Of a stretch of 64,000 bases of DNA, positions 18,001-55,800 are shown piece after piece. Made by a program: the position numbers and the translations under genes. This stretch comes from Cyclina sinensis. Its lineage: Eukaryota > Mollusca > Bivalvia > Venerida > Veneridae. The notes beneath the pieces were generated by a model. It made no database searches. It was given only the letters and a program-made list of their open reading frames with translations, and was not told where the DNA came from. The stretch spans positions 25,561,647-25,625,646 of the forward strand of contig JAAONU010000019.1 of NCBI GenBank assembly GCA_012932295.1, given 5' to 3'. Numbering within the stretch: position 1 is the stretch's first letter; each line of letters opens with the position of its first letter.

Positions 18001-21000
18001 TTACAGTATTTTACAGTAAAATCTTAAAGCCAGTTTCATGTCATAATTATTTCTTGTGGTAAAAGTACCTTAAAATTTCAAGAATATTTTTATTGTTCTT
18101 ATAGTCTGTTTATACGGGTCACAATTTTTAACGTTACCCAGTATTTAACGAATACAATTTATTAACGTTCAGATACCCAGTATTTAATGAATACATTTTT
18201 TTAACGTTCAGATACCCAGTATTTAACGAATACAATTTTTTTAACGTTCAGATACCCAGTATTTAACGAATTCAATTTTCGAAAAGTTCTTACGATTTAT
18301 ATTTGATAAATGTGTTTTGATTGCGGTGAAAATTTGTAACATTCAAAATCTCGTTTCAGAACAAACGTCTGAAAACTCCCTGGAAAAGATTGGTGTTTTC
18401 AAAGCCTTTGTGGGCAACAATTATCGCACATTTTTCTTTCAACTGGAGCTTCTTTACCATATTAATCAATGTGCCTTTCTTTTTTGAAGAAGTTCTCAAG
18501 TATGATATTAAATCGGTGAGAAGTTTATCTGTTTTAGAGATTTGTTAAAATGTATTCAGCATTATTGGCATAAGCATAATAACTAGAAATGTAATTTCAA
18601 TTCTCTTATAGAAAAGACGAAACCAGAATTAGAAAATAAGATTAATCTTTCACTTAATATTTCACATCTTGAAATGAGGAATTTTCAACAAACTGATATT
18701 ATATGTTTACAGAATGGGTTGTATTCGGCAGTACTGTACGTTTTTGATATGATTTTTTCACTTTTCTCTGGGAAATTGTCAACAATTGTCATTAAAAGAC
18801 AATATTTAGGACATCTAGCTACGAGAAGGGCATTTAACTCTATCTGTAAGTCAAAATATTTTTATAAAAACTTTTTAAAAGCTTACAAGGGGGCAATGCT
18901 TAAATAACCAGCTTAGATCAGCAGAAAATTCGTGCAATCGTTAGCAAGATATTGACAATGAGTCTGGCTTTGAATCTTTTACAAATATAACATTTAAGCA
19001 GTTGACGAACATCCGTTTCTTTTGTTTAGATTAGAAAAAAACGATCATAATATATTGCTATTACTTATCATTATTTTCTTTTCAGCTGTCTTTGTTTTAA
19101 ATTGACCTTTTACATTAACTGTAAAACAGGGGCCTGTTGTATGAAGTAGAATGCATAACATTTCAAATCTGCTCAAGTATGTTATCCAGAATTTTATCAT
19201 TGTTTAAAATCAGTTTGCATCTTTCAGGTCTGTTCGGCATTGCAGTTTGTTTGGTATGTGCCGGTTACGTATCGTGTGGGGTACGGCATATAGCCGTGAT
19301 ACTACTCTGTCTTTCATCCATATTTTCAGGGTTTGTATTAGGTGGATTCTATGCAAACCACCCCGAATATGCGGGCCAGTGAGTAGAAATTGAATAAGTA
19401 ATTTTTCATGATATCGAGCATAAACTAATTGCATTTAGATTTAGACCACCAAGCATTGTTATAATGTTAAATTTTGAACAGATTTTAATAATTTCAAATA
19501 TCAAAAACGGAAAACAGTTATGAAAAATTACATTTCAGTTTGGCTTTACACGTTTTAAATTGGATATATATCGGTTGGTAGCCGATTTCTCTTTGTAGGA
19601 TTCTTAATGAAACATTTAGTCTAAATTCAAGAATTAAAGATTCTTTTTTATCACACATTCATTATTCTATTATTTTCAAGTTGGTTTTATTATACAAACG
19701 TAATTTATAAAACTAATTTCATTTTTTTAAGATTTGCTGGTACTGCGTTTGGAATAACCAACACTGCTGGTGTTATTGCATCTATTGTGGCGTCCATGAT
19801 GGCAGGTTTACTAACGCCAAATGTAAGTTTTACAGTGTCTGATCCTGTTATGTTTAGGACGCAAACAAACGCCAACTAATAGGAAGTTGGCAGTAGCAGT
19901 ACGCAGAACGTGAAGTTGGCAGTAGAAATTAAATCAAATGTGAAGTTGGCAGTAGCAGTAACAGCAGTAGCAGTAAGCAAAACGTGAAGTTGGCAGTAGC
20001 AGTAACAGCAGTAGCAGTAGACAAAACGTGAAGTTGGCAGTAGCAGTAACAGCAGTAGAAGTAAGCAAAACGTAAAGTTGGCAGTAGCAGTAACAGCAGT
20101 AGCAGTAGGTAAAACGTGAAATTGGCAGTAGTAGTAACAGCAGTAGCAGTAGGAAACTCTGGAAGTCTTTAAAGTGTTTTAAACAGTCACAGACCGGTGC
20201 AATCGAATCGGGATGGTCGTAAACTTTCTAGATTGACACCAAATTCCAGAAAAATTGCAATAATGTCACAAACAGTAGCAGACCGAAACAATGGACACGG
20301 GAGGGTCTGTTGATGTTTAAACATATTTTTTTTTTCATTAGAACTTTTCCAGATTTTTAAGGGTCTAAATCTAAAATTGACATTTTCTTGATTTTGGCAC
20401 CAAAATTCCTGAAAGTCTGCGAGTGTGTTAGAAATAGTCACAGACCGGTAAAATCGACACGGGAGGGTCTCTAAACATTAAAAATGACATTTTCCCGATT
20501 GGCACCAAAATTCCTGAAAGTCTGCGAGAGGGTCAGAAACAGTCGCAGACCTGTCAAATCGACTCGGGAGGGTCCTTAGACATCAAAACTGACAGTTTCT
20601 TGATTGGCACCAAAATTCCTGAAAGTCTGCGAGAGTGTCAGAAACAGTCGCAGACCGATTAAAGCGACTTGGGAGGGTCCCTAGACCTTATAACTGATAT
20701 TTTCCCAAGTGGCACCAAAATTGCTGAAAGTCTGCGAGAGTGTCAGAAACAGTCGCAGACCGGTAAAATCGACCCGAGAGGGTCCCTAGACATTAAAACT
20801 GATATTTTCCCGATTGGCACCAAAATTCCTGAAATTCTGCGAGAGTGAAAGAAACAGTCGCAGACCGGTAAAATCGACACGGGAGGGTCCCTAGAAATTA
20901 AAAATGACAATTTTTCCTATTGGCATCAAAATTCGTGAAAATTTGTGTCAGAAACAGTCGCAGACCTACGCAATAGACTCGGGAGGGTCTACTGATGTTT

Positions 21001-22174
21001 AAACATATTTTATTTTCATTGGAACTTTTCCAGATTTTTAAGACTACTGCTGTTACTGCTACTGCCAACTTCATGTTTTCTTTACTGCTACTGCTGTAAC
21101 TGCTACTGCAAACTTCACGTTTTCTTTACTGCTACTGCTGTTACTGCTACTACCAACTTCACGTTTTGCCTACTGCTCCTGCTATAACTGCTACTGCCAA
21201 CTTCACGTTTTCTTTACTGCTACTGCTGTTACTGCTCCTGCCAGCTTCACTTTTTCTTTACTGCTACTGTTGTTACTGCTACTGCCAACTTCACGTTTTG
21301 CCTACTGCTACTGCTGTTACTGCTACTGCCAACTTCACGTTTTCTTTACTGCTACTGCTGTTACAGCTACTGCCAACTTCACGTTTTGCCTACTGCTACT
21401 GCTGTTACTACTTCTACCAACTTTACGTTTTCTTTACTGCTACTGCTGTTACTGCTACTGCCAACTTCACGTTTTGCCTACTGCTACTGCTGTTACTGCT
21501 GCTGCCAACTTTTTGCATTCTGCTACTGCTGTAACTGCTATTACCAACTTCACGTTTTCTTTACTGCTACTGGTATTACTACTACTGCCAACTTCACGTT
21601 TGCCACTGCTGTTACTGCTTCTGCCAACTTCACGTTTTGCCTACTGCTACTGCTGTTACTGCTAGTGCCAACTTCAAGTTTTGCCTACTGTTACTGCTGT
21701 TACTGCTACTGCCAACTTCACGTTTTCCTTACTGCTACTGCTGTTACTACTACTGCCAACTTCACATTATTCTACTGCTGCGTACTGCTAATGCTCACTT
21801 CCTACATTGTTGCTAAGATTGAAATATAATACGAAATGACACAAAGTATACTTAAGTCATATAAGCAGTGACTGTAAGAGATCGGGATGTAAATTTTCTA
21901 TTTAATAAGATATACACTTGTAGAATCAAAAGCCATATAATTCAAAAACATATTCCATCAGATTTTTATACTTTCAGATGAAATCATAATGATCTGTCTA
22001 TTTTAGGGATTACAAGAAGAATGGCAGCGTGTGTTTTACCTAGCTGCAGGGGTGAATGTTATCGGCGGTATAGCATATATTATGTGGTCTGACGTGAAAC
22101 TTCAGCAATGGGCAATGAACAAGGAAGAAAGTTCTGTTGAAGGCGAATTAGCGGTGGAAATAGAAATAAAATAA
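11967..22174 (+). CDS. SLC17-family anion transporter, copy A (11 exons)
   Basis: Major facilitator carrier of the SLC17 group (sialin, vesicular glutamate and Na-phosphate transporters), expected in vesicular, lysosomal or plasma membrane and moving organic anions; the substrate cannot be told from sequence. Coding exons: 11967-12069, 15547-15866, 16267-16506, 16981-17068, 17406-17501, 17710-17834, 18360-18515, 18713-18845, 19228-19378, 19732-19822, 22007-22174. Phases agree throughout and give about 556 residues. Exon 2 has the signature HRVNLSLAIVCMVD in TM1, then the long extracellular loop with several N-x-S/T sites. Exon 3 has FYGCFFTQIPAGTIADIFGG, an MFS motif. The weak point is the start: the ATG matching copy B (12001) is out of frame by one missing base, and 11967 is an upstream in-frame ATG. 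Intron 1 holds a decayed gypsy element, and intron 10 a foldback element. Confidence 0.85.
12610..14400 (+). mobile_element. Decayed Ty3/gypsy-like retrotransposon fragments
   Basis: Several frames show fragments resembling gypsy proteins: a gag-like stretch (DSIDTYFDRIEK near 12860, ALKIAVLQRYQPT near 13026), a protease-like stretch with VDTPYYTGEV near 13530, an integrase-like stretch (LHRVAINITGP near 13809, then GKWYILTVVGY), the FSPFRLIYGRQAEV segment near 14090 and an RNase H-like KKLLPREKNYF near 14333. Frameshifts and stops separate all of these, reverse transcriptase was not found, and the RNase H-like piece lies after the integrase, so the element is rearranged or composite. Only a shorter gag-like relic is seen in copy B (61640-61960). 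No LTRs were identified. Confidence 0.6.
14900..15185 (+). repeat. 18-bp AGCGCAGCAAGTC minisatellite, intron 1
   Basis: Degenerate units of about 12-21 bp built on AAGCGCAGCAAGTCTAAG. In copy A one frame is open for 112 codons (14880-15218) and would be rich in Ser, Arg and Lys. The homologous array in copy B (62260-62690) is not open in that frame, so I treat it as an intronic minisatellite and not a gene. Confidence 0.65.
15547..15866 (+). CDS. SLC17 copy A, exon 2
   Basis: Encodes the cytosolic STRWRI, TM1 and the long glycosylated loop. Acceptor TTTTAG. I place the donor at GGG then GTAGGA because only this phase-0 exit joins exon 3 in frame; a nicer-looking GTAAAC site 15 bp later would shift the frame. 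Confidence 0.8.
16267..16506 (+). CDS. SLC17 copy A, exon 3
   Basis: Encodes DWTPELQWQ, then FYGCFFTQIPAG and GGKH (TM2-TM3 and the MFS loop motif), then LVFVLRITIGLAG. 80 codons, phase 0 both ends, donor GTAAGT. Confidence 0.9.
16981..17068 (+). CDS. SLC17 copy A, exon 4
   Basis: GAFIPAGMSMLNVWATPNE matches the family region before TM5. Donor is GTATGT inside TCCGGTATG; this phase-1 exit joins exon 5, whereas reading on to GTAATA would give a stop. Confidence 0.85.
17406..17501 (+). CDS. SLC17 copy A, exon 5
   Basis: Encodes FLTGTIIAFWTSGLLCVYGF, then DNGWPSIFYIHG, a membrane segment and the family's GWP loop. Donor GTAAGG, followed by a GCT repeat at 17508-17533. Confidence 0.9.
17508..17533 (+). 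repeat. GCT trinucleotide microsatellite
   Basis: About eight uninterrupted GCT/TGC units just inside SLC17 intron 5. Confidence 0.9.
17710..17834 (+). CDS. SLC17 copy A, exon 6
   Basis: Encodes GVTLLFTCVWIFEGYSHPSQ, then HPRLTAEELEHIQ, the P-x-hydrophobic-E motif leading into the central loop. Phase 1 in, phase 0 out. Confidence 0.9.
18133..18285 (+). repeat. ~38-bp minisatellite, 4 units
   Basis: Four near-identical units containing ACCCAGTATTTAACGAATAC and TTTTTTAACGTTCAG, in SLC17 intron 6. Confidence 0.85.
18360..18515 (+). CDS. SLC17 copy A, exon 7
   Basis: Encodes TPWKRLVFSKPLWATIIAHF, then NWSFFTILINVPFFFEEVL: the P-W loop and TM7, typical of SLC17. Donor GTGAGA. Confidence 0.9.
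18713..18845 (+). CDS. SLC17 copy A, exon 8
   Basis: Encodes NGLYSAVLYVFDMIFSLFSG followed by a basic loop with TRRAFNSI, matching the family's TM8 and R-K/R-x-F-N segment. Confidence 0.9.
19228..19378 (+). CDS. SLC17 copy A, exon 9
   Basis: Two membrane segments (TM9-TM10) ending in GGFYANHPEYAGQ; the conserved N-H-x-(D/E)-x-A/G-x-(Q/P) stretch is present. Donor GTGAGT, phase 2. Confidence 0.9.
19732..19822 (+). CDS. SLC17 copy A, exon 10
   Basis: FAGTAFGITNTAGVIASIVA then GLLTPN, matching family TM11. Donor GTAAGT. The foldback element at 19880-21804 begins 57 bp into the following intron. Confidence 0.9.
19880..21804. mobile_element. Foldback element 1 with satellite arms
   Basis: The left arm (19880-20155) is a 44-bp tandem array of AAGTTGGCAGTAGCAGTAAC plus CAGCAGTAGCAGTAAGCAAAACGTG. 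The right arm (about 21040-21804) is the same satellite in reverse complement, with many more units. The outer 27 bp (TAGGAAGTTGGCAGTAGCAG...) match inverted at the right end in 24 of 27 positions. The core (20160-21040) holds seven or eight ~105-bp tandem units (CAGACCGGTAAAATCGAC, GGGAGGGTCCCTAGA, GGCACCAAAATTCCTGAAAG). It sits in the last intron of SLC17 copy A. No clear target duplication and no transposase ORF. Overlapping Leu/Thr-rich ORFs in the right arm are repeat artefacts. Confidence 0.7.
22007..22174 (+). CDS. SLC17 copy A, exon 11 and stop
   Basis: LQEEWQRVFYLAAGVNVIGG encodes the last membrane segment, followed by an acidic tail and TAA. W-x-x-V-F-x-x-x-A is the conserved family TM12 entry. 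A candidate AATAAA lies at 22319-22324. Confidence 0.9.
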   Translation, partial: GLQEEWQRVFYLAAGVNVIGGIAYIMWSDVKLQQWAMNKEESSVEGELAVEIEIK

Positions 22175-23095: not shown

Positions 23096-26000
23096 TTTAG
23101 CTCACCTATCACGTAGTGACAGAGTGAGCTTTTCTGATCACCTTTTGTCCGTCGTCCGTCCGTCCGTCCGTCCACAATTAGTTTGTTAACACTCTAGTGG
23201 TCACATTTTTGCCTTAATTGTCATGAAACTTGGTCAGGATGTTTGTCTCATTAATATCTCGGACGAGTTCGAACATGGGTTATCGGGGTTGGAAAACTAG
23301 GTCACAGAGTCCAAATATAGAAAAACCTTGTTAACACTCTAGAGGCTACTTTTTCAGTCCAGATATCTTGAAAATTTGTCAGAGAGGTTTTATCAATGAT
23401 TTCTAGCTCAAGTTCGAATATGGGTCATCTGGGGTCAAAAACTAGGTCACAGAGCCAAAATATTGAAAATCCTTGTTAACACTCTAGAGGTAACATTTTT
23501 AGTCCAAATAATTTGGAAATTTGTCAGAAAGGTTGCTTCTATGATTTCTAGCTCAAGATCGAATATGGGTCATCTGGGTTCAAAAACTAGGTCGCGGAGC
23601 CCAAAAATAGAAATATCTTGTTAACACTCTAGAGGTTACATTTTCAGTCCAAATAATCTGGAAATTTATCAGAAAAGTTGCTATGACGATTTCTAGGTCA
23701 AGTTCAAATATGGGTCATCTGGGTTCAAAAACTAGGTCACAGAGCCCAAATGTATAGAAAATCCTTGTTCAGGGTTGCCAGCGGACTTGAAAAGTCAGGG
23801 AAATTGGGTATTTTTTCAAGGTCAGGGAATTGTCAGGGAATTTTGAAATTTGGTCAGTGAAAAATGAAAATCCTGAAAAGTCAGTGAAAAGTCAGGGAAA
23901 AATTATTTCAAAGGTCGAAAAATATACGCATTGAAGGTCTTACTTGGCTATGGCAGTCTTTAGGCATTTAATATTTGACTTTATCACTCTCACAGTTAAG
24001 CATTAAATTCAAATAACAGTAAACTGTGATATTAAGAAGCATTATATGTTAACTTAGTGATTATAATACCCATTATTTACCTTAGAACATCATGCAGCCA
24101 CACTAACTTACTTCACTCATTCAAAGTCTTTAATTTTATAGTGATTATTTCATGATATGCCAAAATGAGCCCTATGTTCTTGTTTTCACAATCAGTGGAG
24201 TTTATCATGATGCCTTATACAAGTAACTGTGTTAAATGTTTATTGTTCTTATAGTTTAGAGATATTTGAATTTTAAGTTTTGTCATACAAGTATTACTCT
24301 TATAGTCTTGGTGTTTTATGTGTTTATACTACTAGGAAGGAAAGAGTGACTTATGTGATTTCTAATACAGATGCTTATATTATGATTCTTCTGATTTTCA
24401 TGTCATATGTTTCACATGTTTCACTGACCAACAGTCACACTGTGTTTGAATAGAAATAGTTAAGAATAGTAGAACACAATGTTTGAATCATTACTTTGAT
24501 GTAAATGTTTTATATTTTGGAAAATAAATACAAGTTTACATGCAAAAAATATAATGGGAGGATTGGACGGCTATAGGGGAGGTCAGGAGGCCGTTTATGT
24601 GTTTGACGATTTTGGTCAGTGAAAAACATGAATTGGTCAGTGAAAAGTCAGGGAAAAGTCAGGGAATTTTATTTCACCAAAGTGCTGGCAACCCTGTAAA
24701 TGTTAACACTCATGAGGTAACATTTTTAGCCCAAATAATCGGGAAAATTGTCAGAAAGGTTGCTTCTATGATTTCTTGCTCAAGTTTGAATATGGGTCAT
24801 CTGGGTTGAAAAACTAGGTCGCAGAGCCCAAAAATAGAAAAATCTTGTTAAAACTCTATAGGTTACATTTTCAGTCCCAAAAATATCTATAAATTTGTCA
24901 GAAAGGTTGCTTTAATGATTTCTAGGTCAAGTTCGAATATGGGTCATCTGGGGTCAAAAACTAGGTCACAGAGCCCAAATATTGAAAATCCTTGTTAACA
25001 CTCTAGAGGTAACATTTTAAGCCCAAATAATCTGGAAATTTGTCAGAAAGGTTGCTTCTATGATTCCTAGCTCAAGTTGGAATATGGGTCATCTGGGTTC
25101 AAAAACTAGGTCGCAGAGCCCAAAAATAGAAAAATCTTGTTAACACTCTAGAGGTTACATTTTCAGTCCAAGTAATCTGGAAATTTGTCAGAAAGGTTGT
25201 TTTGACGATTTCTAGGTCAAATTCCAATATGGGTCATCTGGGGTTAAAAACTAGGTAACAGAGCCCAAATATTGAAAATCCTTGTTAACACTCTAGAGGT
25301 AACACTTTAAGCCCAAATAATCTGGAAATTTGTCAGAAAGGTTGCTTCTATGATTTCTAGGTCAAGTTTAAATATGGGTCATCTGGGTTCAAAAACTAGG
25401 TTGCAGAGCCCAAAAATAGAAAAATCTTGTTAACACTCTAGAGGTTGCATTTTCAACTCAAATAATCTGGAAATTTGTCAGAAAGGTTGCCTAGAGGAAT
25501 TTTAGGTCAAGTTCAAATATGGGTCCTCTGGGTTAAAAAACTAGGTCGCGGAGCCCAAAAATAGAAAAATCTTGTTAACACTCTAGAGGTTTCATTTTCA
25601 ACTCAAATAATCTGGAAATTTGTCAGAAAGGTTGCCTTGAGGATTTCTAGGTAAAGTTCAAATATGGGTCGTCTGGAGTAAAAAACTAGGTCACAGAGCC
25701 CAAATATGGAAAAACCTTGTTAACATTTTAGAGGTAACATTTTCAGTCCAAATAATCTGGAAATTTGTCAGAAAGCTGAATTCTATGGTTTCTAGCTCAG
25801 TTTCGAATATGGGTTATCTGGAGTCGCAAACTAGGTCACAAAGCCCAAATATCGAGAAACTTTCTAAACACTCTAGAGGCTATACTTTCAGTCCAAATGT
25901 CCTGGAAATTTATCAGAAAGGTTTTTTTGATGATTTGTCGCTCAGGTTTGGATATGGGTTATCTGGGGTCAAAAACTAGGTCACAGAGCCCAAATATCGA

Positions 26001-26332
26001 AAAACCTTGTTAACACTCTAGAGGCTACTTTTTCAGTGGAAATTTGTCTGAGAGATTGTTTCAATTATTTCTAGCTCAAGTTCGAATATGGGACATCTAG
26101 GTTAAAAAAACTAGGTCATAGAGCCCAAATATGGAAAAACTTTGTTAATACTCTAGAAGTAACATTTTCAGTACAAATAACCTAGTAATTTGTCAGAGAG
26201 ATTGTTTCAATAATTTCTAGGTCAGATTCGAATATGGGTCATCTGGGGTCAATTAACCAGGTCCATAGCAACTTTGTTAAAAGCAGTCATTCTCAGGTGA
26301 GCGATACAGGGCCATCATGGCCCTCTTGTTTT
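23096..26332. repeat. Dispersed bivalve-type repeat, ~145-bp tandem units
   Basis: Starts with TTAGCTCACCTATCACG and the GTCCGTCGTCCGTCC run, ends with CAGGTGAGCGATACAGGGCC and ATCATGGCCCTCTTG; the CTCACCT/AGGTGAG ends are inverted. Inside are at least 14 units marked by TTAACACTCTAGAGGT, TGGAAATTTGTCAGAAAGG and AAAAACTAGGTCACAGAGCC. Interrupted by the element at 23770-24696. No coding potential beyond short repeat-periodic ORFs. Confidence 0.85.
23770..24696. mobile_element. hAT-like non-autonomous element, nested
   Basis: 927 bp with 13-bp perfect terminal inverted repeats CAGGGTTGCCAGC / GCTGGCAACCCTG. It interrupts one unit of the surrounding tandem repeat exactly at CTTGTT-AACACTC. Flanks TCCTTGTT and TAAATGTT match 5 of 8, compatible with a worn 8-bp hAT target duplication. 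Both subterminal regions carry repeats of GGTCAGTGAAAA and AAAAGTCAGGGAA. No transposase ORF. Confidence 0.75.
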
Positions 26333-27960: not shown

Positions 27961-27974
27961 TAAGTGTTTAACAC

Positions 27975-28920
27975 TACAAACTGTACAAGAGCCATGTTGA
28001 CATGGCCATCCCCCATCGAATGTGTTTGTTTATTATCATTCTGGTGCACAGCAACCCTCTTACATAAGGTCCATCAACTATGAAGTTTCAAGTTGATATC
28101 TCAAATACTTTTTGACTTATTGTCCGATGAAAAATCAAGCACGAACAATAACGGGTAGAGTTATATTTCTTGTGCACCGCACTCCTTCTTAATGATATAT
28201 ATCCTCCTATAAAGATTCAAGTTGATATCACAAACACCTTTCCAGTTATCTCCGGACAAAAATTAAACACAAAAAATATAAAGAACTATAACTCAAAAAT
28301 GATGAAAGATAGAGTTTTTTTGTGCAATGCATTTCTTGTCGATGAGATCTATCAATCTATGAAATTTCACGTTGATATCTCATATACTTTATGCTTTATC
28401 CGGACAAAAGTTATGAATGAAAAATAAAAAGGGCAATAGCTTAAAAAATATGAAGGGTACAGTTATCATTCTTGTGCACTGCACTCCTCCTAGATGAGAT
28501 ATATCCAACTATAAAGTTTGAAGCTGACACCTCAAATACATTTCGATTTATGCTCCAGACAAAAATTAAGCATGAAAAATAACAAAAGGTTATTACTCAA
28601 AATCTTGAAGGATATAGTTCCTTTTCTTTGCAGTGCATTTTTACTCAATGAGATCTATCCACCCATGAAGATTCAAGTTGATAGCTCAGATACTTTTTAA
28701 ATTATGCTCCGGAACAAAATTAAGCATGGAAAATAACAAAGGGCAATCACTCAAAAATTATGAAGGGAAGTACTCTGCTTTGCACTCATCCATATTGAGA
28801 ACAATCTAATTATAAAGTTTCAAGGTGATATCCTAAATACTTTTCGAGTTATGCTCCAAACAAAAATTATGCATGAAAAACAAAAGAGCAATAACTCAAT
28901 CAGTGATATGTACAAGCATT
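27975..28920. repeat. Dispersed repeat, ~120-165-bp tandem units
   Basis: Starts near AAGAGCCATGTTGACATGGC (27989) and contains about six units with CAAGTTGATATCTCAAATAC, CTCCGGACAAAAATTAAGC and TTCTTGTGCACTGCACTCC. Related repeats lie at 31330-31610 and 50140-50740. Confidence 0.8.
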
Positions 28921-30822
28921 TTATCTCGTTTTTAACTGTAAAACAATCTTGGATTTTACAGGCTTACTACACGATAAACTGTAAGAAATCTGTGATTTGG
29001 TCAAATATATAACTCAACAAACTTCAAAAGAATCCGTGATACGTAAATCATTTAAAACGCCAAATCGTTAATCAATCTGTTTCATATATCAACCTAAAAC
29101 AGGACGAACTGTTAGACACTGTTAGACACAATCTGTGATATGTACAAGCATTTAACATGACAAACTTAAGTCAGAAAAAGTTAATAAAGAATATATATAA
29201 AATGTAAAAAATAGAAAAATGAGAAAGGTATATAGATTGATAATTGTGATTGCATTACCGAAGAAGTATTGTTTTTAATAATTTTATGTATAATATCTTG
29301 AAAACGAAAATTATTACTTTTTTCATTTAAGCCCTGTGAATATGTCAGCAAGTGTTGCAACTTCAATGCCTCCAGTGATGATACATATGCTAGGCATATC
29401 TCAGTGGTTACTGAATATGTTCATTTATTTTAGAGTTGTACTTTCATTTTAAACACTCGGGGAAAAATCACAATGTAGATATAGCTAATTTCGCAAACTG
29501 TTTTTTTCTAGGACACTCAATACTTCACAAACAATATGTGTTAAAACTAGATAAACGCAAAATATGCTTAAATATTTACATTTATATCTTTATGATATTT
29601 TTTTACTGCATTTTAACTTACAGTGAGCAAAGCTGTAGACAGTGTTACCAAAATTACTACAGAAATCAATCAATAAGAAACTTAAACGGAAAAATGGGAC
29701 AACTTTCATCTCCTCATTGATTACAGTAATGAATATCGTGTCCTTGTGGAACAGTTTAAAATCAAATGGATCTTTCTCACACAAATGGGTGTATTCTGCC
29801 CCAGTACATTTATCAATCACGCAATGAGTTAAGAGTAAATATGTCCCTTTGTATATGGCCTCCATTCAAACTAACATCAAGCTAAGTAAAGACGGTTTTT
29901 CCAACTAGAGCAGAAATTAGATGACATTTGTGAGGGAGTTTTGATCCAGAAAAGGAGTGTAAGAGATATTAAGAGGGGAAACTGTTAAGGTTCATTCCAA
30001 CATGATACACAATGTTCCTTAAGGAACGTTCAGTGTACAGAGAATTCAATACCAGCACCCTCAGTAGCCCCAGTTAAATTAATTGAAAGTGGATTAGTGC
30101 TCTAGATGAACATGAAAGTGATCTGCACTCATTGGCCACATAGAGGAAGATAATACACTTTGGAATCACTTCAGCACAACAAGTCTAGTTTGCGCAACAT
30201 TTATACAATTTACATAGCTGCAACCTCTGCTTCTAGAAAGCTCCATGCTTGATTAGAACTGTTAATTAACAAAACAGACATGATATTGACTATGCCCTTT
30301 CAGTATTTAAAGAGATTTAAAGAGATAAATGCTGTAAATGGAAACATAAAAGCCAGCCTCGAATACAATATAGCTTTCTTTATAAGTTCATATAGTTATG
30401 ACACCCTTTAAAAAGCAAGATATGTTTATAATATCTTTAAAAAACAAAAGCTCCGTCTTACAATGATCTCCCTTTCACTTTTCACTGTACCGAAAGGGAA
30501 GTAATAGCTGGAGTAGATATTACTTTTAAGCATTTAAATAGGACATTAGTCAACAGGTCAAAGTCCAAGGAGTTATTGATAACTTTACCTACATCTATCA
30601 TTTTAATGGTAAAACTTTTTGTATAATATATCGCCTTTTCTCTCGTCCGTAATGTTCTTCATGTAGGCGATTGTAGGAGGCAGGTAAACATGTCACAAGA
30701 ATAAATATGTTATATGTACATTTACATTGCTTAGAAGGCAGTACAGGATTACTTCATTAGAAACTCTTTGTTATATGTACATTAACCTCACATAGAAGTC
30801 TTTACAGGAACTCGTTTGTACG
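28921..30822. other. No gene seen
   Basis: AT-rich, with overlapping ORFs of 60-95 codons on both strands near 29436-29865 but no recognisable domain or paired splice sites. Confidence 0.4.
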
Positions 30823-31706
30823 GAAGCCCTGGAGGGACTTCTAAGTTCCGGACTTCTTAGTTCCGGACTTCTAACTTTATGACTTATGACTTCTAACTTC
30901 ATTTTTCTTACTTTTAACTTCATGACTTCTAACTTCCTTACTTCTAAATGACTTTTAACTTCCTTACTTCTAACTTCCTTGCTTACAATTTCATGACTTC
31001 TATTTTTTTTAATTCTAGCACCCTTACTTCTTACTTCATAACTTCAAACTTCCTTACTTCTAACTTCTTTAACCTTACTTTCTTACTTCTAACTTCATGA
31101 CTTCTTACTTCTAACTTCCTTTCTTCAGACTGAAGTTAGAAGAAGTCATGAAGTTAAAAGTCATGAAATTACAAGTAAGAAGTCATGAAGTTGATATCAT
31201 GAAGTAAGACGTTATGAGGTTAGAAGTCCTGAAGTAAGAAATCATGAATTTAGAAGTAAGGAAGTTAGACGTCACGAAGCTAAAAGTAATAAGTCGTGAA
31301 GTTAGAAGTAATTAGAGCCATGTTACACATGATTGATTCCCCCGCCGGGAAGAAGTTACTTAAAGGTTGTACTTTCAAAAACTAAATGTAATAATGCGTG
31401 TTTGCAGTTTGAAAAAATAATATCCCTAAAAAATATGCAAGGTACAGTTACTGTTCTTGCACACTGCACTTTCTACCAATGTGCTATGTCAGTGTATTAA
31501 GTTTGAAGAAAATTGCTCGAGTAGTTTTGGAGTTATGCTCCGGACAAAACTGGGACGGACGGAGACCATTTCTAATATCCCATTCGCCTCTGGCGAAGGG
31601 ATAAATAAGTAATGAAGTAAGAAGTACTGAAATTAGAAGTCATAAGTCTTGAAGTTAGAAATCCGAAAGTTAGAAGTCAGGAACTTAGAAGTCCTTCCAG
31701 GGCTTC
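30823..31706. mobile_element. Foldback element 2 with ~10-bp repeat arms
   Basis: Ends are inverted: GAAGCCCTGGAGGGACTTCT at the left; the right end read in reverse is GAAGCCCTGGAAGGACTTCT. The left arm repeats (GACTTCTAACTTC), the right arm repeats (GAAGTTAGAAGTC), and the turn is at about 31125-31135. The right arm is split by a copy of the dispersed repeat family (about 31325-31610, ending CCTCTGGCGAAGGGATAA). No target duplication was recognised. Confidence 0.7.
31325..31610. repeat. Dispersed repeat fragment inside foldback element 2
   Basis: Begins AGAGCCATGTTACACATG and ends TTCGCCTCTGGCGAAGGGAT, a hairpin end found in this family. Its insertion postdates the foldback element. Confidence 0.65.
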
Positions 31707-31989
31707 TATACTTTTGGATTAAAAGTGTTAGGTTATCATTGTACTATAGATACAATGTTAAGACGCGATTCAAGATTAAGAGGTTATAAATTTTTCGGGA
31801 CTCGGTCGCACCACACTTACAAGCCTGTATATGTGTATTTATACTTAGAAATATTTATCTTTTTAAGAAGAAACAAATAAAAAGAGTTTATTAAATAGTT
31901 AAAACGTGTATTAACTTGCCTGATAATTGACTGTCGTATACGGTTGCATGTATAAAATATTTTACAGATAGTGCAAAGGTGCAAAGGTT

Positions 31990-42377: not shown

Positions 42378-42383
<6 letters not shown>

Positions 42384-43249: not shown

Positions 43250-44420
43250 CAGCAATCCCCAGATCAAGTGGGCATCAGTTACCTACAGGTTTAGTGGACA
43301 ACAGTTATCTCAAGATTTGGTGGGAATTAGCAAAATTCATAACTATTTGATATCAGCGATATTCAGATTAAATGGGCATCAGCGACCTCCAAATTGAGTG
43401 AGCCTCACGAACCTTCAGATTCAGTGGACTCAAGCGAAGACCAGATCTGGTGGGCACCAATGACCTCCAGATCTTGTGGGCATCAGCGACCTCCAGATCT
43501 AGTGGGCATCAGAAAAATTCAGATTTAGTGGGCATCAGAGACCTTCCATTTCATAAGGCACCAACGACCTCCACATATGGTGGGTACCAGAGATCTCCAG
43601 ATCTAGTAGGTACCATCGACCATCAAATCTAGTGAGCATCATCAACATCCAGATCTAGTAAGCACTAAAAACCTTCAGATCTAGTGGGTATTAGCGATTT
43701 CCAGATCTAGTGGGCATCAGCGACCTTCAGATCTAATTAGCATCAGCCATATAAGATCTAATGGTCATCGACAACCTTTAGATATAGCGGGCATCAACGA
43801 CCTCCAGGTCTAGTGGGCATCATACATATTCATATCTAGTGGACATAGAGACCTTCAGATTCATAAGGCACCATCGACATCCACATATTGTGGGTACCTG
43901 CGACCTCCAAATCTAATAAGTACCAGCGACCTCCAGATCTGGTGGGCATTAGCGACCATTAAACTAGTGGGCTTCATCGACATAAAGATAAAGTGAGCAT
44001 TAACGACCTTCAGATTTGTGGGCATTAGTGACTTCCAGATCTAGTGGGAATCAGCGATCTACAGATCTAGTGGACGTCAGAGACCTCCGGATCTAGACGG
44101 CATCAGCGACCTTAAGATCTAATTGGCATCAGCCATATAAGATCTAATTGGCATTGACAACCTTTAGATATAGTGGGCATCAGCGACCTTTAGATCAAGT
44201 GGGTACCAGCGACCTCCAAATCTAGTGGGCATAAGCGACCTTCAAATCTAGTATAGGCATTGATGACCTTCCGATCTAGTGGTCATCAGCGGCCTTTTTT
44301 ATTTTTTTAGTAATGACAAGCACATGATTGCATAAAATGGAAAAAAATAAATTCAGATCTAGTTGGCACCAGCATCCACCAGATATGATGGGCACCAGCC
44401 ACACTTAAATCTGGAGTTGC
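43250..44420 (+). repeat. 26-bp minisatellite, about 40 units
   Basis: Degenerate units of CAGATCTAGTGGGCATCAGC followed by GACCTC; many carry the AGATCT hexamer. Copy A has only about two units at the corresponding place (3170-3220). Confidence 0.85.
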
Positions 44421-46010: not shown

Positions 46011-46029
46011 CAATCTTTCGTCCGATCGA

Positions 46030-46271: not shown

Positions 46272-46273
<2 letters not shown>

Positions 46274-46313
<40 letters not shown>
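46274..46313. repeat. GT dinucleotide microsatellite
   Basis: About 20 GT units; the Cys/Val ORF across it is an artefact. Confidence 0.9.
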
Positions 46314-46315
<2 letters not shown>

Positions 46316-46722: not shown

Positions 46723-46858
46723 ATGATTTGTCTTTTTTGCGGAGTTTTGGATAAAATACGGAACGGACTAGGATATATTCTGGTTGTGGCACGGTGCCGT
46801 TGGATAAACAGCACATTTCTAGCATGGGTACTGTTCTTGTCCTTCACAGCATTGATAG
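46723..46858 (+). CDS. Sulfotransferase exon 1 (start, signal-anchor)
   Basis: ATG in AAAAAAATGATTTG. Encodes MICLFCGVLDKIRNGLGYI, then the anchor. Donor ATAG then GTGAGA, phase 1. The frame stays open to 47025, but the read-through version cannot join exon 2 in frame. Confidence 0.8.
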
Positions 46859-49800
46859 GTGAGATGGCGTTTATTTATTTGAACATTATTTTAAGCCAAG
46901 CTATTTTATGTCTCACTGAGAGAGGAAATAGCGCAGTCAACTTTTTAGTAGAGGGTCAGACTCCAGAAAGATCACTGGTCAAACATCAGAATGCATCGTG
47001 CATTTATCAATCTTTCTTCTGGTAAGAACTTGTGCAAGTCCTCTTCAAGAGCAGATAACAGAAACTTTAAAACGTCAATTACAGCCGATGTTAAATAACT
47101 AACTTGAGAACAAAATGAAATTTTAAAACTAAGTGTTTTTTTTTTCCATTTAAAACATTTTATAAATTGTCTTTTGTTTTATGGAGGTAGATTTTTTTAC
47201 TTTTATCCAGGTTTTGTCACACAGATGCAACTTCAGCATGCTATAATGGTCACCGGGGATGTGTTTCAGTTTGACCAGGCCACTCCACAAGACCTTAAAA
47301 AATACGTTATCATCTCTGGTTACACCAAAGGTTTACTCTTACCTCTCTTTCTTGTACCTATGCTTTAGTGTTTTTGTTTGCACTTCGGCTTGTGCCTTAT
47401 TTGAGATTTATTCGACGCACTTCCTTTAACTGAACATTCTGGTGATGAACGTGAAGTTGGCACATAGATCGCGGCTCTACAACTAGCTCTGCGATCTTAT
47501 ATCATTGCAGAGCTGGGTCGCAGCTCTACATCCAGCTCTGCAATCTTATATCATTGCAGAGCTGGGTCGCAGCTATACATCCAGCTCTGCGATCTTATAT
47601 CATTGCACAGCTGGGTCGCAGCTCTACATCCAGCTCTGCAATCTTATATCATTGCAGAGCTGGGTCGCAGCTCTACATCCAGCTCTGCAATCTTATATCA
47701 TTGCAGAGCTGGTTAGCAGCTCTACATCCATCTCTGCAATCTTATATCATTGCAGAGCTGGTTAGCAGCTCTACATCCAGCTGTGCAATCTTATTTCATT
47801 GCAGAGCTGGGTCGCAGCTCTACATCCAGTTCTGCAATCTTATATCATTGTATAGCTTGGTCGTAGATCTACAACTAGCTCTGCAATCTTACATCATTGC
47901 AGAGCTGGGTCGCAGCTCTACATCCAGCTCTGCAATCTTATATCATTGCAGAGCTGGTAAGCAGCTCTACATCCATCTCTGCAATCTTGTATCATTGCAG
48001 AGCTGGTTAGCAGCTGTACATCCAGCTCTGCAATCTTATATCATTGCAAAGCTGATTCCCAGCTCTTAATCTAGGCTATCGACATCTAAATTTGCAATCT
48101 ATGATTAATACAGATCTGGGTATAATATCTAAATATAGCACACTAATCTTGTATCTTTGCTCTAGGAGAACTGTGTCGTAGTTCGACATCTGGTTGCAAT
48201 TTAACATAAGTGCAGAGGTTGATCGTTTATAGACATCTAGCTCTGTTATCTAACATAAGTGCAGAGCTAGGTCGTAGATCGACATCTACGTCTGCAATCT
48301 TGTTTCACTGCAGTGCTGGATCTCAGCTCTACATCTAGATCTGCAGTCTTTTTTTCATTTCAGTGCTGGGTCGTAGACAACGAGCTCTTCAAACATTTGT
48401 TTTTACTTCTTTTTACATATTCATTATTCAGTTTCAATTAGGTCTGTAAAATTTTAATGGTATTTCAGTGTATCTTCACTGTAGAGCGTTATCTTAATGA
48501 CGTTTCAGATGAGCATAGTTATTTGACCAAATAGATTTGTAATGGTTTTATTATTATACAGAAACAAAAACTGGAAGGATAGAACTTGTTTTAGTTTTGT
48601 CTACTTTTCATGTACAGTCATGTAGGTCTATTTACACTTTTGGCGGCTCTTGCAAAGAAATGTTTGATTTTCTCATATCTGCAAGGGGAACTTTGATCTT
48701 TTCCCTGCTTTCTTGCTACCTTGTCACTACGGTGGAAAAGAGGTTATACATGTTTAAAAGTAATGTATTCCGTATAAGAAAAACATAAACATTGGATTTG
48801 TTTTTTTTATCTCGATCCAAAGAAATGCGACGTAGTATATCGTAGTACATTTAACGAGCAACTGAGTCGTGTTGAAACGACATGCAAAGTCAAGTGCATT
48901 ATTTTCAAGATTACAATAAGACGAGAGACAGATGCGCTCAAGAAGGAATGCATTAAAACAAGAAGTATACACTAGCTATGGCTATGAATACAAAGTGCGT
49001 AAAAGATTAGTTTTGATGCAAGCATCAAAAGCGGCGCGCATATTTTTAAAGTATGGTTTAAATTCACCAAAAACTATTATAGTGTTTGATTTTGATGCTA
49101 TGAGCAAAATTATTTACTGCTGGGTTGTAACATTTTTGACAGAATTCATGAACTGTTTGTTTTATTGGTTGTTTATGATTTTTCCTTAAAGTTTATATCT
49201 AACCAGCAAGTATCAATTTCTCCGCAAATGAATGACTTTCTCCACTGTCTCTAACATGAGTCTGAGACAGTGGTGAGAGACGAATGACCTTAAGGCAAAA
49301 CGTTCGAGATCAATCGTCACAGAGAAATTTACACTCATTCCAGTGATCGAACCTTTGATTCTTAATACAGTACTGTACCAATTGAGCTCAGCAGGTGGGC
49401 ATCTGTCTTAAAGGAAAATGTAAGAGATCCACGAACGTTTAACTATCAAATAAAGAAGGGTCATCAAATTACACTTCTCGTTGTTTACGGGATAAAATGG
49501 AAAACGAAATTTTATCCATTTCGTAGCAAAACATAAAATAAATTAATTTTACTCAATCCAGTTGACAGATACAATGGTATAAAATACATCTGGGTGCTAG
49601 TAATTATAGAAACAGAATAAGGTTTTCAGCATCGTGCCATCGTCCCATAATAATGTGAATAACGAGTTTTCGAAATTTCTGAGGTTAAGTCTGACTAACT
49701 TCGAATTGTGATACTCAATGGCCATACAAAGACTCCGTTGAGTAAAGAACGTAAGTAATCCTTAAAAGGAGTCTGGCGGCTCAAGAAATAAAACTTGTTA

Positions 49801-52800
49801 CCACCTTTAAGTGATAGCTCTCATATAATTATAAAGGAGGTGCGTTCGAATACTTATTCTCATGACTTATCAACAGATTTGTTGGGGGTCGGGGTTAGAG
49901 CAGCAGTCATCAACATGCCAAAATAAACAAACGACGTAAATATGAAAATGCCTTTGTCCGCAATTAACATGTGTAAAAATGCTTGAACATTTAAGGCTCT
50001 TAGCCTATTCACACACCATACGTGTTGCGATAGACTTTTTGTCCATCCGTAGAATGTAGAAAGAAAAAGAAAGAAATGCAAAAAGTTTATTTACTACAAT
50101 ATGTTTGTAACAACACGGATATAGATTGTTACAAAACTCTTATCAACAAGAGCCATGTTAACATGTGTTTGCTTATTGGAAGAATGTATATGTAGCAGCA
50201 GCGCAACATAATTCAATTTCGGTAATGATAACTAATGGCTGAAGTAATTACAGATTTGAAAGTTAAAGGTCAATAACTGAAAAATCATGTATAGTAGCGT
50301 TATCATTCTTGTGCGCTGCACTCCTCCACAGTGAGATCTTTCAACCTATGAAGTTTCAAGTAGATACCTGCAATACTTTTGAGATAAGCTCGGGACAAAA
50401 AGTATTAAAAATAACAAAGGGCACTAAATCAAACATTATAAAAAGCAGAGTTATCATTCTTGCGCACAACATTCCTCCTCAATAAGATCTATCCACCTAT
50501 AAAGTTTCATGTGGACATCTCAAAGACATTTTGAGTTCTGCTCCACTCAGGTGAAAATTAAGTATGAAAAAACAAAGATTATTAAGCGTAAAGATATCAC
50601 TCTTCTACACTGCACACCTCCTGAGTGAGCTCTATCCACATATTATGATGTTTCATGTTCATAACTCAAAGTCTTTTTAAGTAATGCTTTGAAAAATAAC
50701 AAAAGGCAATAACTGAAAAAAACTATGCAGATGGAGTGATGCCATGAAAAAGATTGCAGAGCTAGATGGAGAAATGCGACCCAGCTCTGCAATGATTTAA
50801 GATTGAAGAGCTTGTTGTCGACCTTCGACCCAACTCTGCAGCTATACAACTTTTAGAGCTATATGTCGATCTATGATCCAACTCATTGTGATATATGATT
50901 GCAGAGCTAGATATTGAACTGCGACACAGCTCTGCAATGATATAAGATTGGAAAGCTGGACGTAGACCTGCGACCTAGCTCTGTAATTGTATAAGATTGC
51001 AGAGCTAGATGTAAATCTACGACAAAGCTATGCAATGATATAAGATTGCAGAGCTGGATGTAGAGCTGCGACCTATCTGTGTAATGATATTAGATTGCAG
51101 AGCTGGATGTACAGCTGCGACACAGCTCTGCAATGATATAAGATTGCAGAGCTAGATGTAGATCTACGACCTAGCTCTGCAATGATATAAGATTGCAGAG
51201 CTGGATGTAGAGCTGCGACCCAGCTCTGCAATGATATAAGATTGCATAGCTGGATGTATAGCTGCGACACAGCTCTGCAATGATATAAGATTTCAGAGCT
51301 AGATGTAGATCTACGACCCAGCTATGCAATAATGTTAGATTGCAGAGCTGGATGTAGAGCTGCGACCAAGCTCTGCAATGATATATGATTGCAGAGCTGG
51401 ATGTAGGTCTGTAATGATATAAGATTGCATAGCTGGATGTAAGTCTGCGACCCAGCTATGCAAAGATATAAGATTGCAGAGCTGGATGTAGAGCTGCGAC
51501 CCAGCTCTGCAATGATATAAGATTGCAGAGCTAGATGTAGAGCTGCGACCCAGCTCTGCAATTATAAGATTGCAGAGCTGGATGTAGAGCTGCGACCTAG
51601 CTCTGTTATTATATAAGATTGCAGAACTGGATGTTAGTTTGTGACCAAGCTTTGCAATTATATAAGATTACAGAGCTAGTTGTAGATCTAAGACCAAGCT
51701 ATACAATGATATAAGATTGCAGAGCTAGATGTAGATATACGACCCAGCTATGCAATGATTTGTAGAGCTGGATGTAGAGCTGCGACTCCAGCTCTGCAAT
51801 GATATAAGAATCCAAAGCTAGATGTAGAGCTGCGACCCAGGTCTGCAATGATATAAGATCGCAGAGCTGGATGTAGAGCTGCGACCCAGCTCTGCAATGA
51901 TATAAGATTGCAGAGCTGGAGTAGAGCTGCGACCCAGCTCTGCAATGATATAAGATTGCAGAGCTGGATGTAGAGCTGCGACCCAGCTCTGCAATGATAT
52001 AAGTTTGCAGAGCTAGATGTAGATCTACGACCCAAGCTATGCAATGATATTAGATTGCAGAGCTGGATGTAGAGCTGCGACCCAGCTCTGCAATGATATA
52101 AGATTGCAGAGCTGGATGTAGAGCTGCGCCCCAGCTATGCAATGATATAAGATTGCAGAGCTGGATGTAGAGCTGCGTCCCAGCTCTGCAATGATATAAG
52201 ACCGCAGAGCTGGATGTAGAGCTGCGACCCAGCTCTGCAATGATATAAGATTGCAGAGCTAGATGTAGAGCTGCGACCAAGCTCTGCAATTATAAGATTG
52301 CAGAGCTGGATGTAGAGCTGAGACCCAGCTATTAAATGATATAAGATCGCAGAGCTGGAGGTAGAGCTGCGACCCAGCTCTGCAATGATATACGATTGCA
52401 GAGCTGGATGTAGGTCTGTAATGATATAAGATTGCATAGCTGGATGTAAGTCTGCGACCCAGCTATACAATGATATAAGATCGCAGAGCTGGATGTAGAG
52501 CTGCGACCCAGCTATGCAATGATATAAGATTGCAGAGCTAGATGTAGAGCTGCGACCAAGCTCTGCAATTATAAGATTGCAGAGCTGGATGTAGAGCTGA
52601 GACCCAGCTATGCAATGATATAAGATCGCAGAGCTGGATGTAGAGCTACGACCCAGCTCTGCAATGATATAAGATTGCAGAGCTGGATGTAGGTCTGTAA
52701 TTATATAAGATTGCATAGCTGGATGTAAGTCTGCGACCAAGCTCTGCAATGATATAAGATTGCAGAGCTGGATGTAGACCTGCGACCCAGCTCTGCAATG

Positions 52801-55800
52801 ATATAAGATTGCAGAGCTTGATGTAGAGCTGCGACCCAGCTCTGCAATGATTTAAGATTGCAGAGCTGGATGTAGAGCTGCGACCCAGCTCTGCAATGAT
52901 ATAAGATTGCAGAGCTGGATGTAGAGCTGGGACCCAGCTCTGCAATGATATAAGATTTCAGAGCTAGATGTAGATCTACGACCCAGCTATGCAATGATAT
53001 TAGATTGCAAAGCTGGGTGTAGAGCTGCGACCCAGCTCTGCAATGATATAAGATTGCAGAGCTGGATGTAGGTCTGTAATTATATAAGATTGCATAGCTG
53101 GATGTAGGTCTGCGACCAAGCTATGCAATGATATAAGATTGCAGAGCTGGATGTAGAGCTGCGACCCAGCTCTGCAATGATATAAGATTGCAGAGCTAGA
53201 TGTGGAGCTGCGACCAAGCTCTGCAATTATAAGTTTACAGAGCTGGATGTAGAGCTGCGACCCAGCTCTGCAATGATATAAGATCGCAGAGCTGGATGTA
53301 GAGCTGCGAACCAGCTCTGCAATGATATAAGATTGCAGAGCTGGATGTAGAGCTGCGACCCAGCTCTGCAGTGATATAAGATTGCAGAGCTGGATGTAGA
53401 GCTGCGACCCAGCTCTGCATTGATATAAGATTGCAGAGCTGGATGTAGAGCTTCGATCTATGTGCCAACTTCACGTTCATATTCTGGTGACCGATTTTCC
53501 CTTTAAAGAGGCGTTTTTTTTATCAAAATCTAGTCAGAGTAGCTCTCTAATATATGTCCATGCGTCCGTTTTTCCAAGTTGATTTTCTACCGTTTTAAAC
53601 TTGTAATTTTTTTTAATATCTGACGCGTCTTCTAAAAGATTATGTCATCCTTGTCAGTCAGCTGGACGAGTTCATTTTTAATAAAAGGGTTTCTGGTATA
53701 AATTTTTAATTTTATTCTAATAAGATTAGTCAAAAAGTGCTCTTAATAAAGATCGGGGGACCTTTTTGTTCTGATTATTAAACTTTGCATCTTTAAAATT
53801 GCTGATTTTCGCGTGATTTTGAAATTATTAAAGTGGTCTTAATTACGGAACTTTACTGTATTTAGGGAAGAAAATCTTTTAAACAAACATGCATAGTGAA
53901 GCGTTTGATCCGGGTCTGCACTGTTTGTCAATATCTAGTTTTGTTAAATGGTGATCATTTTGACGATTGAAATACATACACTTCCAGCAATTCCCTTACT
54001 GAGGTATTGACTTGTTCTCTTCTGTTTTTTATTCGAATTTAAAAAAAGAAATAAGTTACTGGTTCCCTGTTCCTTAATCGAAGTGGAATAGGGAACCAAC
54101 TTTATAAACATAATTAAAACATGAAATTCCAGTTACTTTGTGATCTAATAAAAGAAACTACACCTTTTTCCTGACAGGCGGAGGTAATGTGATCGGAGAA
54201 GTTCTGGGCGCACGGCCGGACACTTTCTATGCATATGACCCGTTAGTGACACTAGCGGATTCGTACTACTTCAAAACTCCAACTACAATGTGTAAAACGT
54301 TTCGGCAAAGCTGGTAGGTGTATCTGTATGAACAAATGTTTTATTAAAGTTGGATACCCTACATTCCAATTCCACCGCTGATGCACGGCATATGTACTTT
54401 TACTGATTCAACTCCTATAAAAATGCAAAAATTAATTGCTAACTAACAGAATAAATTAAGTATGTGTGTTCAAACATCTTTTTTTTTCTTTTTGGTTTTA
54501 CGTCTACTATATTGCATATGTCAAACATGTCTATTGCAGTTTACAAAATAAAGCCACAGAAAAGGCTTTGGCTAGGATTAAAAATATACTTACATGTAGC
54601 AGTTCGAATATGGTCGGCAAGCAGTATCATTCGAAATGGGACATCGGGGGTAGGTGCAAAAATGTTTTTGCATTTCATGCTTCAACATATAATCGTAGTG
54701 TCGCGACCAGTACCATATAAATGTTTTAGATTGGTCAAATAACGTAAACTCATTTATATTTCGGTTGAGAAAAGCAAGGTGAGCCCCTGCCAATTTCAGT
54801 GTGAGCTCACACACCTGAGAATTTCAACGTACACAGTTAATACCCATTTATGATAAAGATTGATCTACACCAATCAACAAAAAAAGTGATCTCAGAATGA
54901 GGTCTGTAATTGAGGCGGTAAAAAGATCTTAAAGGTGCAGTCTGCATGATTATTTTGATTATTCGGCGCGGCTGTATTAAATCAATTTTGATCTACATTT
55001 GTAACGAACGAAATTGTTATATACAAAACCTTAAGCTGAAGAAAGAAGTTTGCCATTGGTTAAAAGTATTGATTTTACGAACATTTAGGGCAGAATTCCA
55101 AATATTAGTTTAATTGCCTCTGAAACCAACGCAGTAAATATAACATTAATACAGTCGTTAACTTAATATCAAAACGTTTTAACCATAAAAAATTATACTT
55201 AATTGAATGAATATATTATAAAAATCATTAACATTAATTCATTTTACTGAAATTGATATTGACACTTGTAGAATTAAACTCAATATTTTTTGTTTATAGC
55301 CTAAATGTTAAGGACATAGGACATACGATTGCTACAAGCTTTAACTTATTGTCAATGTTCGAAATTTTACTCTTGTGAGGCAATAATTTTGTACTTTATC
55401 TACGCCGATCATCTTTTTTTAAAGATATTTCTTGTTTTTTTTATCATCCTTTTACTTTTATGTATTTACGGTTGAAAAATCTTCTACTGATATGATTTAG
55501 GAGATGTGTGGCAGAGGTACCACGAATGTTTGACGAACAAAGAGTACGACAGAAAATTCTGTGACCAGTTTCTAAGCTACCGGTGCCTAAAAGCCAACGT
55601 CCGAATGATCAAAACAGAACAGCTGTCTGTAGAACTCATTGGAAAGCTCTTGGAAGAGCATCCGAATCTGTCCGTAAGAAATTTACTTTTTATTGAATGG
55701 TAAAGGTGATTGAAAAATAGTAAATAAACTTTTACTTTGATTGTAAGAAATCGGAATTTCACTATAAAAAAAAAATAAAAAATCTGCGAGGAGATTGGCT

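What the first reader, a model, noticed from the sequence alone, without database searches (positions are those of the whole stretch)
19880..53479. Two foldback elements with unrelated satellites share a 16-bp motif
GAACGTGAAGTTGGCA occurs at the outer end of element 3 (47447) and near the outer end of element 1 (about 19906), with truncated forms (AACGTGAAGTTGGCA) in further units of its arm. Beyond the motif the satellites differ (49-bp GCAGAGCTGG type versus 44-bp GCAGTAGCAG type). This suggests a shared recognition end with exchangeable arms, a modular satellite-transposon system I have not seen described.
Basis: partly seen in the sequence, partly recalled or inferred. Interest (0 to 1): 0.85.

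Follow-up and report, generated by a model that had tools for sequence, protein, structure and literature searches.

The report
Foldback transposons sharing one end sequence
Two hairpin-shaped jumping-DNA elements in this genome end in related short sequences, as does a third family found here; they look like relatives moved by one unseen enzyme, a kind of arrangement already known from flies and nematodes.

Summary
The motif is real: 308 exact copies in this 903-Mb genome, reversed control 0. In 228 it carries the family A continuation (element 3, 49-bp arms); 24 of 29 A pairs read have perfect 9-bp target duplications, control 0 of 812. Element 1 is family B (44-bp arms; 767 copies of one end). 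Its true end is at 19875 (ACTAATAGGAAGTTGGCA), not 19906: 8 of 17 copies have perfect 9-bp duplications, control 0 of 270, the window copy none. The 19906 hit is an internal satellite unit. A third family, C (73-bp arms, 100 end matches), ends alike in the same register. Arms are mostly family-specific: 64 of 67 convergent pairs among listed ends are same-family, though C ends lie inside A ends at five loci. I saw no transposase in the copies read. Best reading: related non-autonomous, probably Mutator-like foldback families sharing a recognition end; Tetris/DAIBAM, Tm1 and Muta1 are published precedents.

The parts
47436..47444 (.). Left 9-bp target-site duplication ATTCTGGTG of element 3 (family A)
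47445..53480 (+). Element 3: complete family A foldback element, 6036 bp, no transposase gene seen
   Evidence: Ends ATGAACGTGAAGTTGGCACATAGA at both sides, perfect TSD; longest window frames here are satellite; no gene seen in the cores of fetched copies
47445..47468 (+). Family A left terminal module ATGAACGTGAAGTTGGCACATAGA
47469..48066 (+). Left arm, 49-bp satellite, about 12 units (a further degenerate array at 48260-48377)
48400..50740 (.). Family A core; pieces over 150 bp are 95.9-99.5% identical to the cores of other copies
50750..53456 (-). Right arm, 49-bp satellite in inverted orientation, about 55 units
53457..53480 (-). Family A right terminal module (mirror of the left)
53481..53489 (.). 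Right 9-bp target-site duplication ATTCTGGTG
19875..21807 (+). Element 1: family B foldback element, no target-site duplication detectable in this copy
   Evidence: Ends set from other copies; in the window copy 8 of 9 TSD positions differ
19875..19892 (+). Family B end 1, ACTAATAGGAAGTTGGCA; positions 9-18 equal those of the family A end
19906..19921 (+). Exact 16-bp motif inside element 1: an internal unit with G for A at its first base, not the terminus
19936..20153 (+). Left arm, 44-bp satellite, 5 units, each carrying the motif with 1-2 changes
20372..20940 (+). Part of the core of element 1: a 105-bp tandem repeat, 5.4 copies
21044..21779 (-). Right arm, 44-bp satellite inverted, about 17 units
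21792..21807 (-). Family B end 2, here ATGTAGGAAGTGAGCA (other copies ATGTATAGGAAGTGAGCA)

Best explanation
Elements 1 and 3 belong to two of at least three related families of non-autonomous foldback DNA transposons (A: 49-bp arms; B: 44-bp arms; C: 73-bp arms) in one genome. SHOWN in the copies read: paired mirror ends, 9-bp target duplications in all three families, and a similar terminal sequence (roughly A.....CGTGAAGTTGGC, GAAGTT at positions 9-14 from the target site in A, C and B end 1) in the same register. INFERRED: one transposase or a close set of them, of the Mutator-like kind by duplication length, recognises this end and moves all three in trans. Each family's arms then grew by tandem duplication of its own subterminal DNA. 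In B the amplified unit includes the end motif itself, so each arm carries many extra copies of the recognition-like site. A and C diverged from a common element, and a C interior was later carried inside A ends and multiplied.
For: Motif 308 exact copies, reversed control 0. Family A continuation 228. Family A TSD: 24 of 29 pairs perfect at 9 bp, control 0 of 812 (2 of 812 with at most 1 mismatch). B: 767 end-1 matches (up to 2 mismatches) and 622 end-2 (up to 1), controls 0; TSD 8 of 17 perfect, control 0 of 270. C: 100 end matches with up to 3 mismatches, control 1; TSD 5 of 11 distinct pairs perfect, 8 of 11 with at most 1 mismatch, control 0 of 110. Terminal 18 bp, ungapped from the TSD: A-C 13/18 (15 of 100000 shuffles), A-B1 13/18 (12 of 100000), A-B2 12/18 (121 of 100000); against all 127964 window 18-mers 28, 28 and 65 reach these. 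Convergent pairs among listed ends on contigs 1-4: A-A 27, B1-B2 32, C-C 5, mixed 3; outward neighbours 2. A and C satellite units related (2 of 1000 shuffles), B to neither (657 and 933 of 1000). 6 of 7 exact C ends on contigs 3-8 lie 425-1250 bp inside a same-facing A end.
Against: No transposase found: no transposase-sized non-satellite frame in the fetched A copies (frames unspliced), no Pfam hit above cut-off in seven frames, and 14 MULE-domain hits on contigs 1-4 all at least 67 kb from any listed end. So the Mutator assignment rests on TSD length alone. The C-B1 terminal match is weak (9/18, 2926 of 100000 shuffles). The motif inside B units is not significantly better conserved than the spacer (0.937 vs 0.896, p = 0.14), so a binding-site role in the arms is not shown. 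The window copy of B has no TSD.
Confidence: 0.75

Rival explanations
1. The shared end is only common descent: the families split from one element and the terminus has not yet diverged, while each is now served by its own transposase.
For: A and C share sequence beyond the end (51 of 2000 shuffles) and related satellites (2 of 1000). B's own outer ends have drifted (ACTAATAGG and ATGTATAGG).
Against: B's inner end sequence and satellite show no likeness to A or C while the end stays alignable, which points to selection on the end.
Confidence: 0.17
2. True modular exchange: ends are a reusable cassette into which unrelated satellites are swapped, by recombination or gene conversion between elements.
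For: C ends inside A ends at five loci; in the two read the interior is C, 99.9% identical between them, one with a perfect 9-bp TSD and the other with none. One arm with the A satellite in flipped orientation behind the exact end (L058).
Against: 64 of 67 convergent pairs among listed ends are same-family. The exact 18-bp end is followed by a base other than C in 5 places only, none of them a new satellite. The composites can be explained by insertion of C into A.
Confidence: 0.06
3. Chance or simple-repeat similarity between two unrelated satellites.
For: B's spacer is CAG-like low-complexity sequence.
Against: 308 exact copies, 0 reversed controls; 0.02 expected in the window; same register from the TSD in three families.
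Confidence: 0.02

Closest known systems
Tetris and DAIBAM, Drosophila virilis group (PMC4079207; abstract and sections 10, 17, 18 read)
   Same: Foldback element with tandem repeats inside long inverted ends, 8-10 bp TSD, no coding capacity seen; [quoted passage not shown]
   Different: There the likeness is long (95% and 89% at the two ends, and over most of DAIBAM) and DAIBAM is thought a deletion derivative. Here three families share about 18 bp and each has its own satellite.
Tm1, root-knot nematodes (PMC3169594; passages read)
   Same: Composite inverted repeats with a repeated motif, most commonly 9-bp TSDs (45 of 53 with 8-10 bp), different short terminal motifs at the two ends as in family B.
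   Different: Tm1 has one copy with a MULE (Phantom-type) transposase; none was found here.
Muta1, Aedes aegypti (PMC5225508; passages read)
   Same: Short terminal motif plus subterminal tandem repeats; many non-autonomous copies share the ends but differ inside; its authors say it can be classed as a type 2 foldback element.
   Different: 8 or 9 bp TSD, 12-bp repeats in 145-bp ends, active transposase; here arms reach kilobases.
Rehavkus (PMC6446971 passages; PMC10218199 passages)
   Same: 9-bp TSD; Rehavkus-1_TC has arrays of a 164-bp satellite in its inverted termini.
   Different: Rehavkus has a transposase with a PHD finger; none seen here.
Galileo, Drosophila (PMC3573991 abstract and section 8; PMC3688188 abstract)
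   Same: Long internally repetitive ends, chimeric copies with the same centre under different ends; extra transposase-binding sites in the arm repeats.
   Different: P superfamily, 7-bp target duplication.

Membership tests
Foldback-type DNA transposon (descriptive class) | Long inverted ends built of tandem repeats | tested here: met
   A and B in the window, C in L028 and L065
Foldback-type DNA transposon (descriptive class) | Target-site duplication showing transposition | tested here: met
   A 24 of 29, B 8 of 17, C 5 of 11 perfect; perfect in controls 0 of 812, 0 of 270, 0 of 110; the window copy of B lacks one
Mutator-like (MULE) superfamily | 8-11 bp target-site duplication | tested here: met
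   9 bp in A, B and C; range from PMC6446971
Mutator-like (MULE) superfamily | MULE transposase encoded by an element with these ends | tested here: inconclusive
   66 PF10551 hits in the genome. The 14 on contigs 1-4 are all at least 67 kb from a listed end; the rest were not compared by script. In 8 hit loci with about 1.5 kb of flank the best likeness to the A end had 4 of 18 mismatches
Rehavkus | 9-bp TSD and minisatellite in the ends | tested here: met
Rehavkus | Transposase with PHD finger | not tested
   No transposase found to test
Galileo / P superfamily | 7-bp target-site duplication | tested here: not met
   9 bp in all three families; 7 bp from PMC3573991
Merlin (IS1016-type) | Transposase (PF12762) with these ends | tested here: inconclusive
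   18 hits; 0.7 kb on either side of one copy held no likeness to the A end under 6 mismatches, but no inverted ends of that copy were found there either
Helitron / Helentron (the usual satellite carrier in oysters, PMC8268682 passages) | No target-site duplication (recalled) | tested here: not met
   9-bp duplications present

The most novel reading that the evidence does not exclude
Family B has turned its own recognition end into a satellite. Its units (44 bp, with a 61-bp variant) carry an end-like motif, so arms of up to dozens of units are arrays of transposase-binding sites or alternative ends. These would compete for, or cooperatively recruit, a transposase shared with families A and C, and let element length and end choice change at each move.
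Probability: 0.25. Interest if true: 0.6.

Novelty: new member of a known kind. Interest (0 to 1): 0.4.

Why it matters
It gives a clear natural case in one genome of three satellite-armed foldback families, over a thousand matched ends in all, tied together by an 18-bp end in fixed register to a 9-bp target duplication. That makes it possible to ask which bases a foldback transposase reads, how satellite arms arise next to a recognition end, and whether arm repeats act as extra binding sites. It also supports the view that some dispersed satellites are parts of transposons.

Tried and rejected
Transposase hunt: in the 33 loci of 28 family A elements (L009-L041) stop-to-stop frames were either satellite or short (longest non-satellite frame inside an A element 139 aa). 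Spliced genes are not excluded. Pfam on seven frames gave nothing over cut-off. PF10551 and PF12762 searches gave hits, none tied to these ends where checked. Frames in the B cores were listed but not searched against Pfam.

Selection on the motif inside B units: motif columns (5-16) 0.937 identity against 0.896 for spacer columns 17-40, p = 0.14, over about 162 units from 12 arms of 6 loci. A first version of that script timed out.

More satellite types behind the exact end: 5 sites with a base other than C after the 18-bp end; A variants or internal B units. 285 sites of the 15-mer AACGTGAAGTTGGCA followed by A or T (control 2). I looked at two short pieces only: one is an ordinary B array, the other a 61-bp B-like variant. 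The count for the 15-mer followed by G did not complete.

The B interior (window 20156-20400) as a DNA query did not complete, so B copy numbers rest on end patterns. Rfam: no match in the window. tRNA: none. Literature: eight searches; the motif string was found in none of the 5.39 million papers searched. Repbase is not held, so a named entry there cannot be excluded.
Full report
OBSERVATION. The exact 16-mer is in the window at 19906 (+), 47447 (+) and 53463 (-). With two mismatches allowed there are 22 hits where shuffles give 0.02. Tandem Repeats Finder gives a 44-bp array on both sides of element 1 and a 49-bp array on both sides of element 3; the arms face each other.

GENOME-WIDE. The window is part of a 903-Mb genome in 154 contigs. 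It is unnamed; that it is a bivalve is my guess from recalled repeat style. The exact motif occurs 308 times (149 +, 159 -), its reversed form 0 times; 238 are preceded by T. Of the 308, 228 read GAACGTGAAGTTGGCACATAGA, the family A continuation.

FAMILY A (element 3). From the first 100 places listed I took convergent pairs with the exact motif at both ends: with the window copy, 29 pairs. So the mirror motif is how they were chosen; what is not chosen is the rest. The motif is preceded by AT at every end used but one (AA in L022). Outside AT there is a perfect 9-bp duplication in 24 of 29. Counted the same way, lengths 7 and 8 give 1 each, 10 and 11 none. Of 812 mismatched pairings 0 are perfect and 2 have one mismatch or fewer. 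Of the other five, L013 has one mismatch, L017 looks shifted by one base, L018 has an inner end that pairs perfectly with the right end (both read), and L022 and L030 show none. Same-locus elements run from 257 bp to 9.3 kb, split ones to about 17 kb. Core pieces over 150 bp are 95.9-99.5% identical to the window core. No transposase-sized frame was seen.

FAMILY B (element 1). Comparing copies shows the ends: end 1 ACTAATAGGAAGTTGGCAGTAGCAG, end 2 ATGTATAGGAAGTGAGCAGTAGCAG. Genome counts are 767 (up to 2 mismatches) and 622 (up to 1), reversed controls 0. Outside these ends 8 of 17 copies have a perfect 9-bp duplication and 9 of 17 at most one mismatch; 0 of 270 mismatched pairings. Two of the 8 (L043, L047) were used to set the end points. 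Of the 13 pairs fetched afterwards by position (13 of the 32 listed), 6 are perfect. The 17 include two near-duplicates without a duplication (L099, L100), L044 and the window copy, which has none. The 16-bp motif is part of the B satellite unit (AAACGTGAAGTTGGCA + CAG-like spacer), so the exact hit at 19906 is an internal unit.

FAMILY C. Two A copies (L028, L030) hold a different interior, in L028 with 73-bp arrays. At its right edge is AAGTCCGTGAAGTTAGCTCGGAGATC, a relative of the A end; no C end was seen at its left junction. The genome has 100 such ends with up to 3 mismatches, control 1. I picked 14 convergent pairs by eye, 11 of them distinct: 5 of 11 have a perfect 9-bp duplication, 8 of 11 at most one mismatch, control 0 of 110. 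The end point was set by eye on these same pairs. A 2-kb piece of a long C element holds 73-bp units and no frame over 122 aa.

REGISTER. Written from the base next to the target duplication: A ATGAACGTGAAGTTGGCA; C AAGTCCGTGAAGTTAGCT; B1 ACTAATAGGAAGTTGGCA; B2 ATGTATAGGAAGTGAGCA. Without gaps: A-C 13/18, A-B1 13/18, A-B2 12/18, B1-B2 13/18, C-B2 11/18, C-B1 9/18. Shuffles reaching these: 15, 12, 121, 23, 239 and 2926 of 100000. Of 127964 window 18-mers 28, 28, 65, 11, 174 and 2761 reach them. Inside the end, A and C show weak likeness (51 of 2000 shuffles) and related satellite units (2 of 1000); B shows none to either. The end is therefore the one part common to all.

EXCHANGE OR DESCENT. 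On contigs 1-4, using the listed ends (62 A, 98 B1, 100 B2, 33 C), the nearest convergent partner within 20 kb is same-family in 64 of 67 cases (27 A-A, 32 B1-B2, 5 C-C). Two are A-C (the L028 and L030 loci) and one is B2-C at 16 kb. Outward neighbours: 2. The A and B lists show exact matches only and are cut at 100 places, so mismatched ends and later contigs are not in this count. On contigs 3-8, 6 of 7 exact C ends lie 425-1250 bp inside a same-facing A end, at five loci; 0 of 20 diverged C ends on contigs 5-8 do. The interior was read at two of the five. L028 has a perfect A-type duplication; L030, with a 99.9% identical interior, has none. So an A-ended composite with a C interior appears to have multiplied. 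I read this as nesting followed by transposition; exchange is not excluded.

MECHANISM. Shown: mobility (duplications), mirror ends, similar terminus. Inferred: a transposase acting in trans, Mutator-like by the 9-bp duplication. Galileo's arm repeats hold extra binding sites for its transposase (PMC3688188, abstract only), which makes the many motif copies in B arms suggestive, but the motif columns are not significantly more conserved than the spacer.

KNOWN KINDS. Tetris and DAIBAM share the final parts of their ends and are thought to be moved by one unseen element (PMC4079207). Tm1 has mostly 9-bp duplications and unequal terminal motifs like B (PMC3169594, passages). Muta1 is classed as a type 2 foldback MULE whose derivatives share ends and differ inside (PMC5225508, passages). 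Rehavkus-1_TC has satellite in its inverted termini (PMC10218199, passages; PMC6446971, passages). The set found here is new to me in its details but ordinary in kind.

Noticed in passing
window 30818-31711: A third hairpin element with arms of a 15-bp minisatellite (ACTTCTAACTTCCTT), outer arms 87% complementary, no clear target duplication by eye and no hit of the 16-bp motif at 2 mismatches.
   Followed up: partly
window 19733-19822 and 22010-22171: Element 1 sits between two apparent exons. The downstream one matches sialin (SLC17-type transporter) chains in the PDB, E = 1.3e-05, though its only Pfam hit is an unrelated one below cut-off. The upstream one was read by eye and gave no Pfam hit.
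   Followed up: partly
window 28279-28710 and about 50264-50584: Part of a tandem repeat of about 154 bp outside the elements is 72-74% identical to the end of the family A core.
   Followed up: no
L029 and L037: Family A copies with two extra internal ends about 1 kb apart in one arm, as if a nested end had been duplicated with the arm.
   Followed up: no
L105: A 61-bp variant of the B satellite that keeps the motif but has a different spacer.
   Followed up: partly
G000 contigs 5, 9, 10, 17: Several Merlin-type (PF12762) transposase hits with identical or nearly identical scores and open frames of 332-343 aa, possibly a recently active family.
   Followed up: no
window 23266-26252, 43260-44296, 7893-8765, 62301-62613: Further tandem arrays (periods 145, 26/77, 162 and 18 bp); whether they have mirror partners was not checked.
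   Followed up: no
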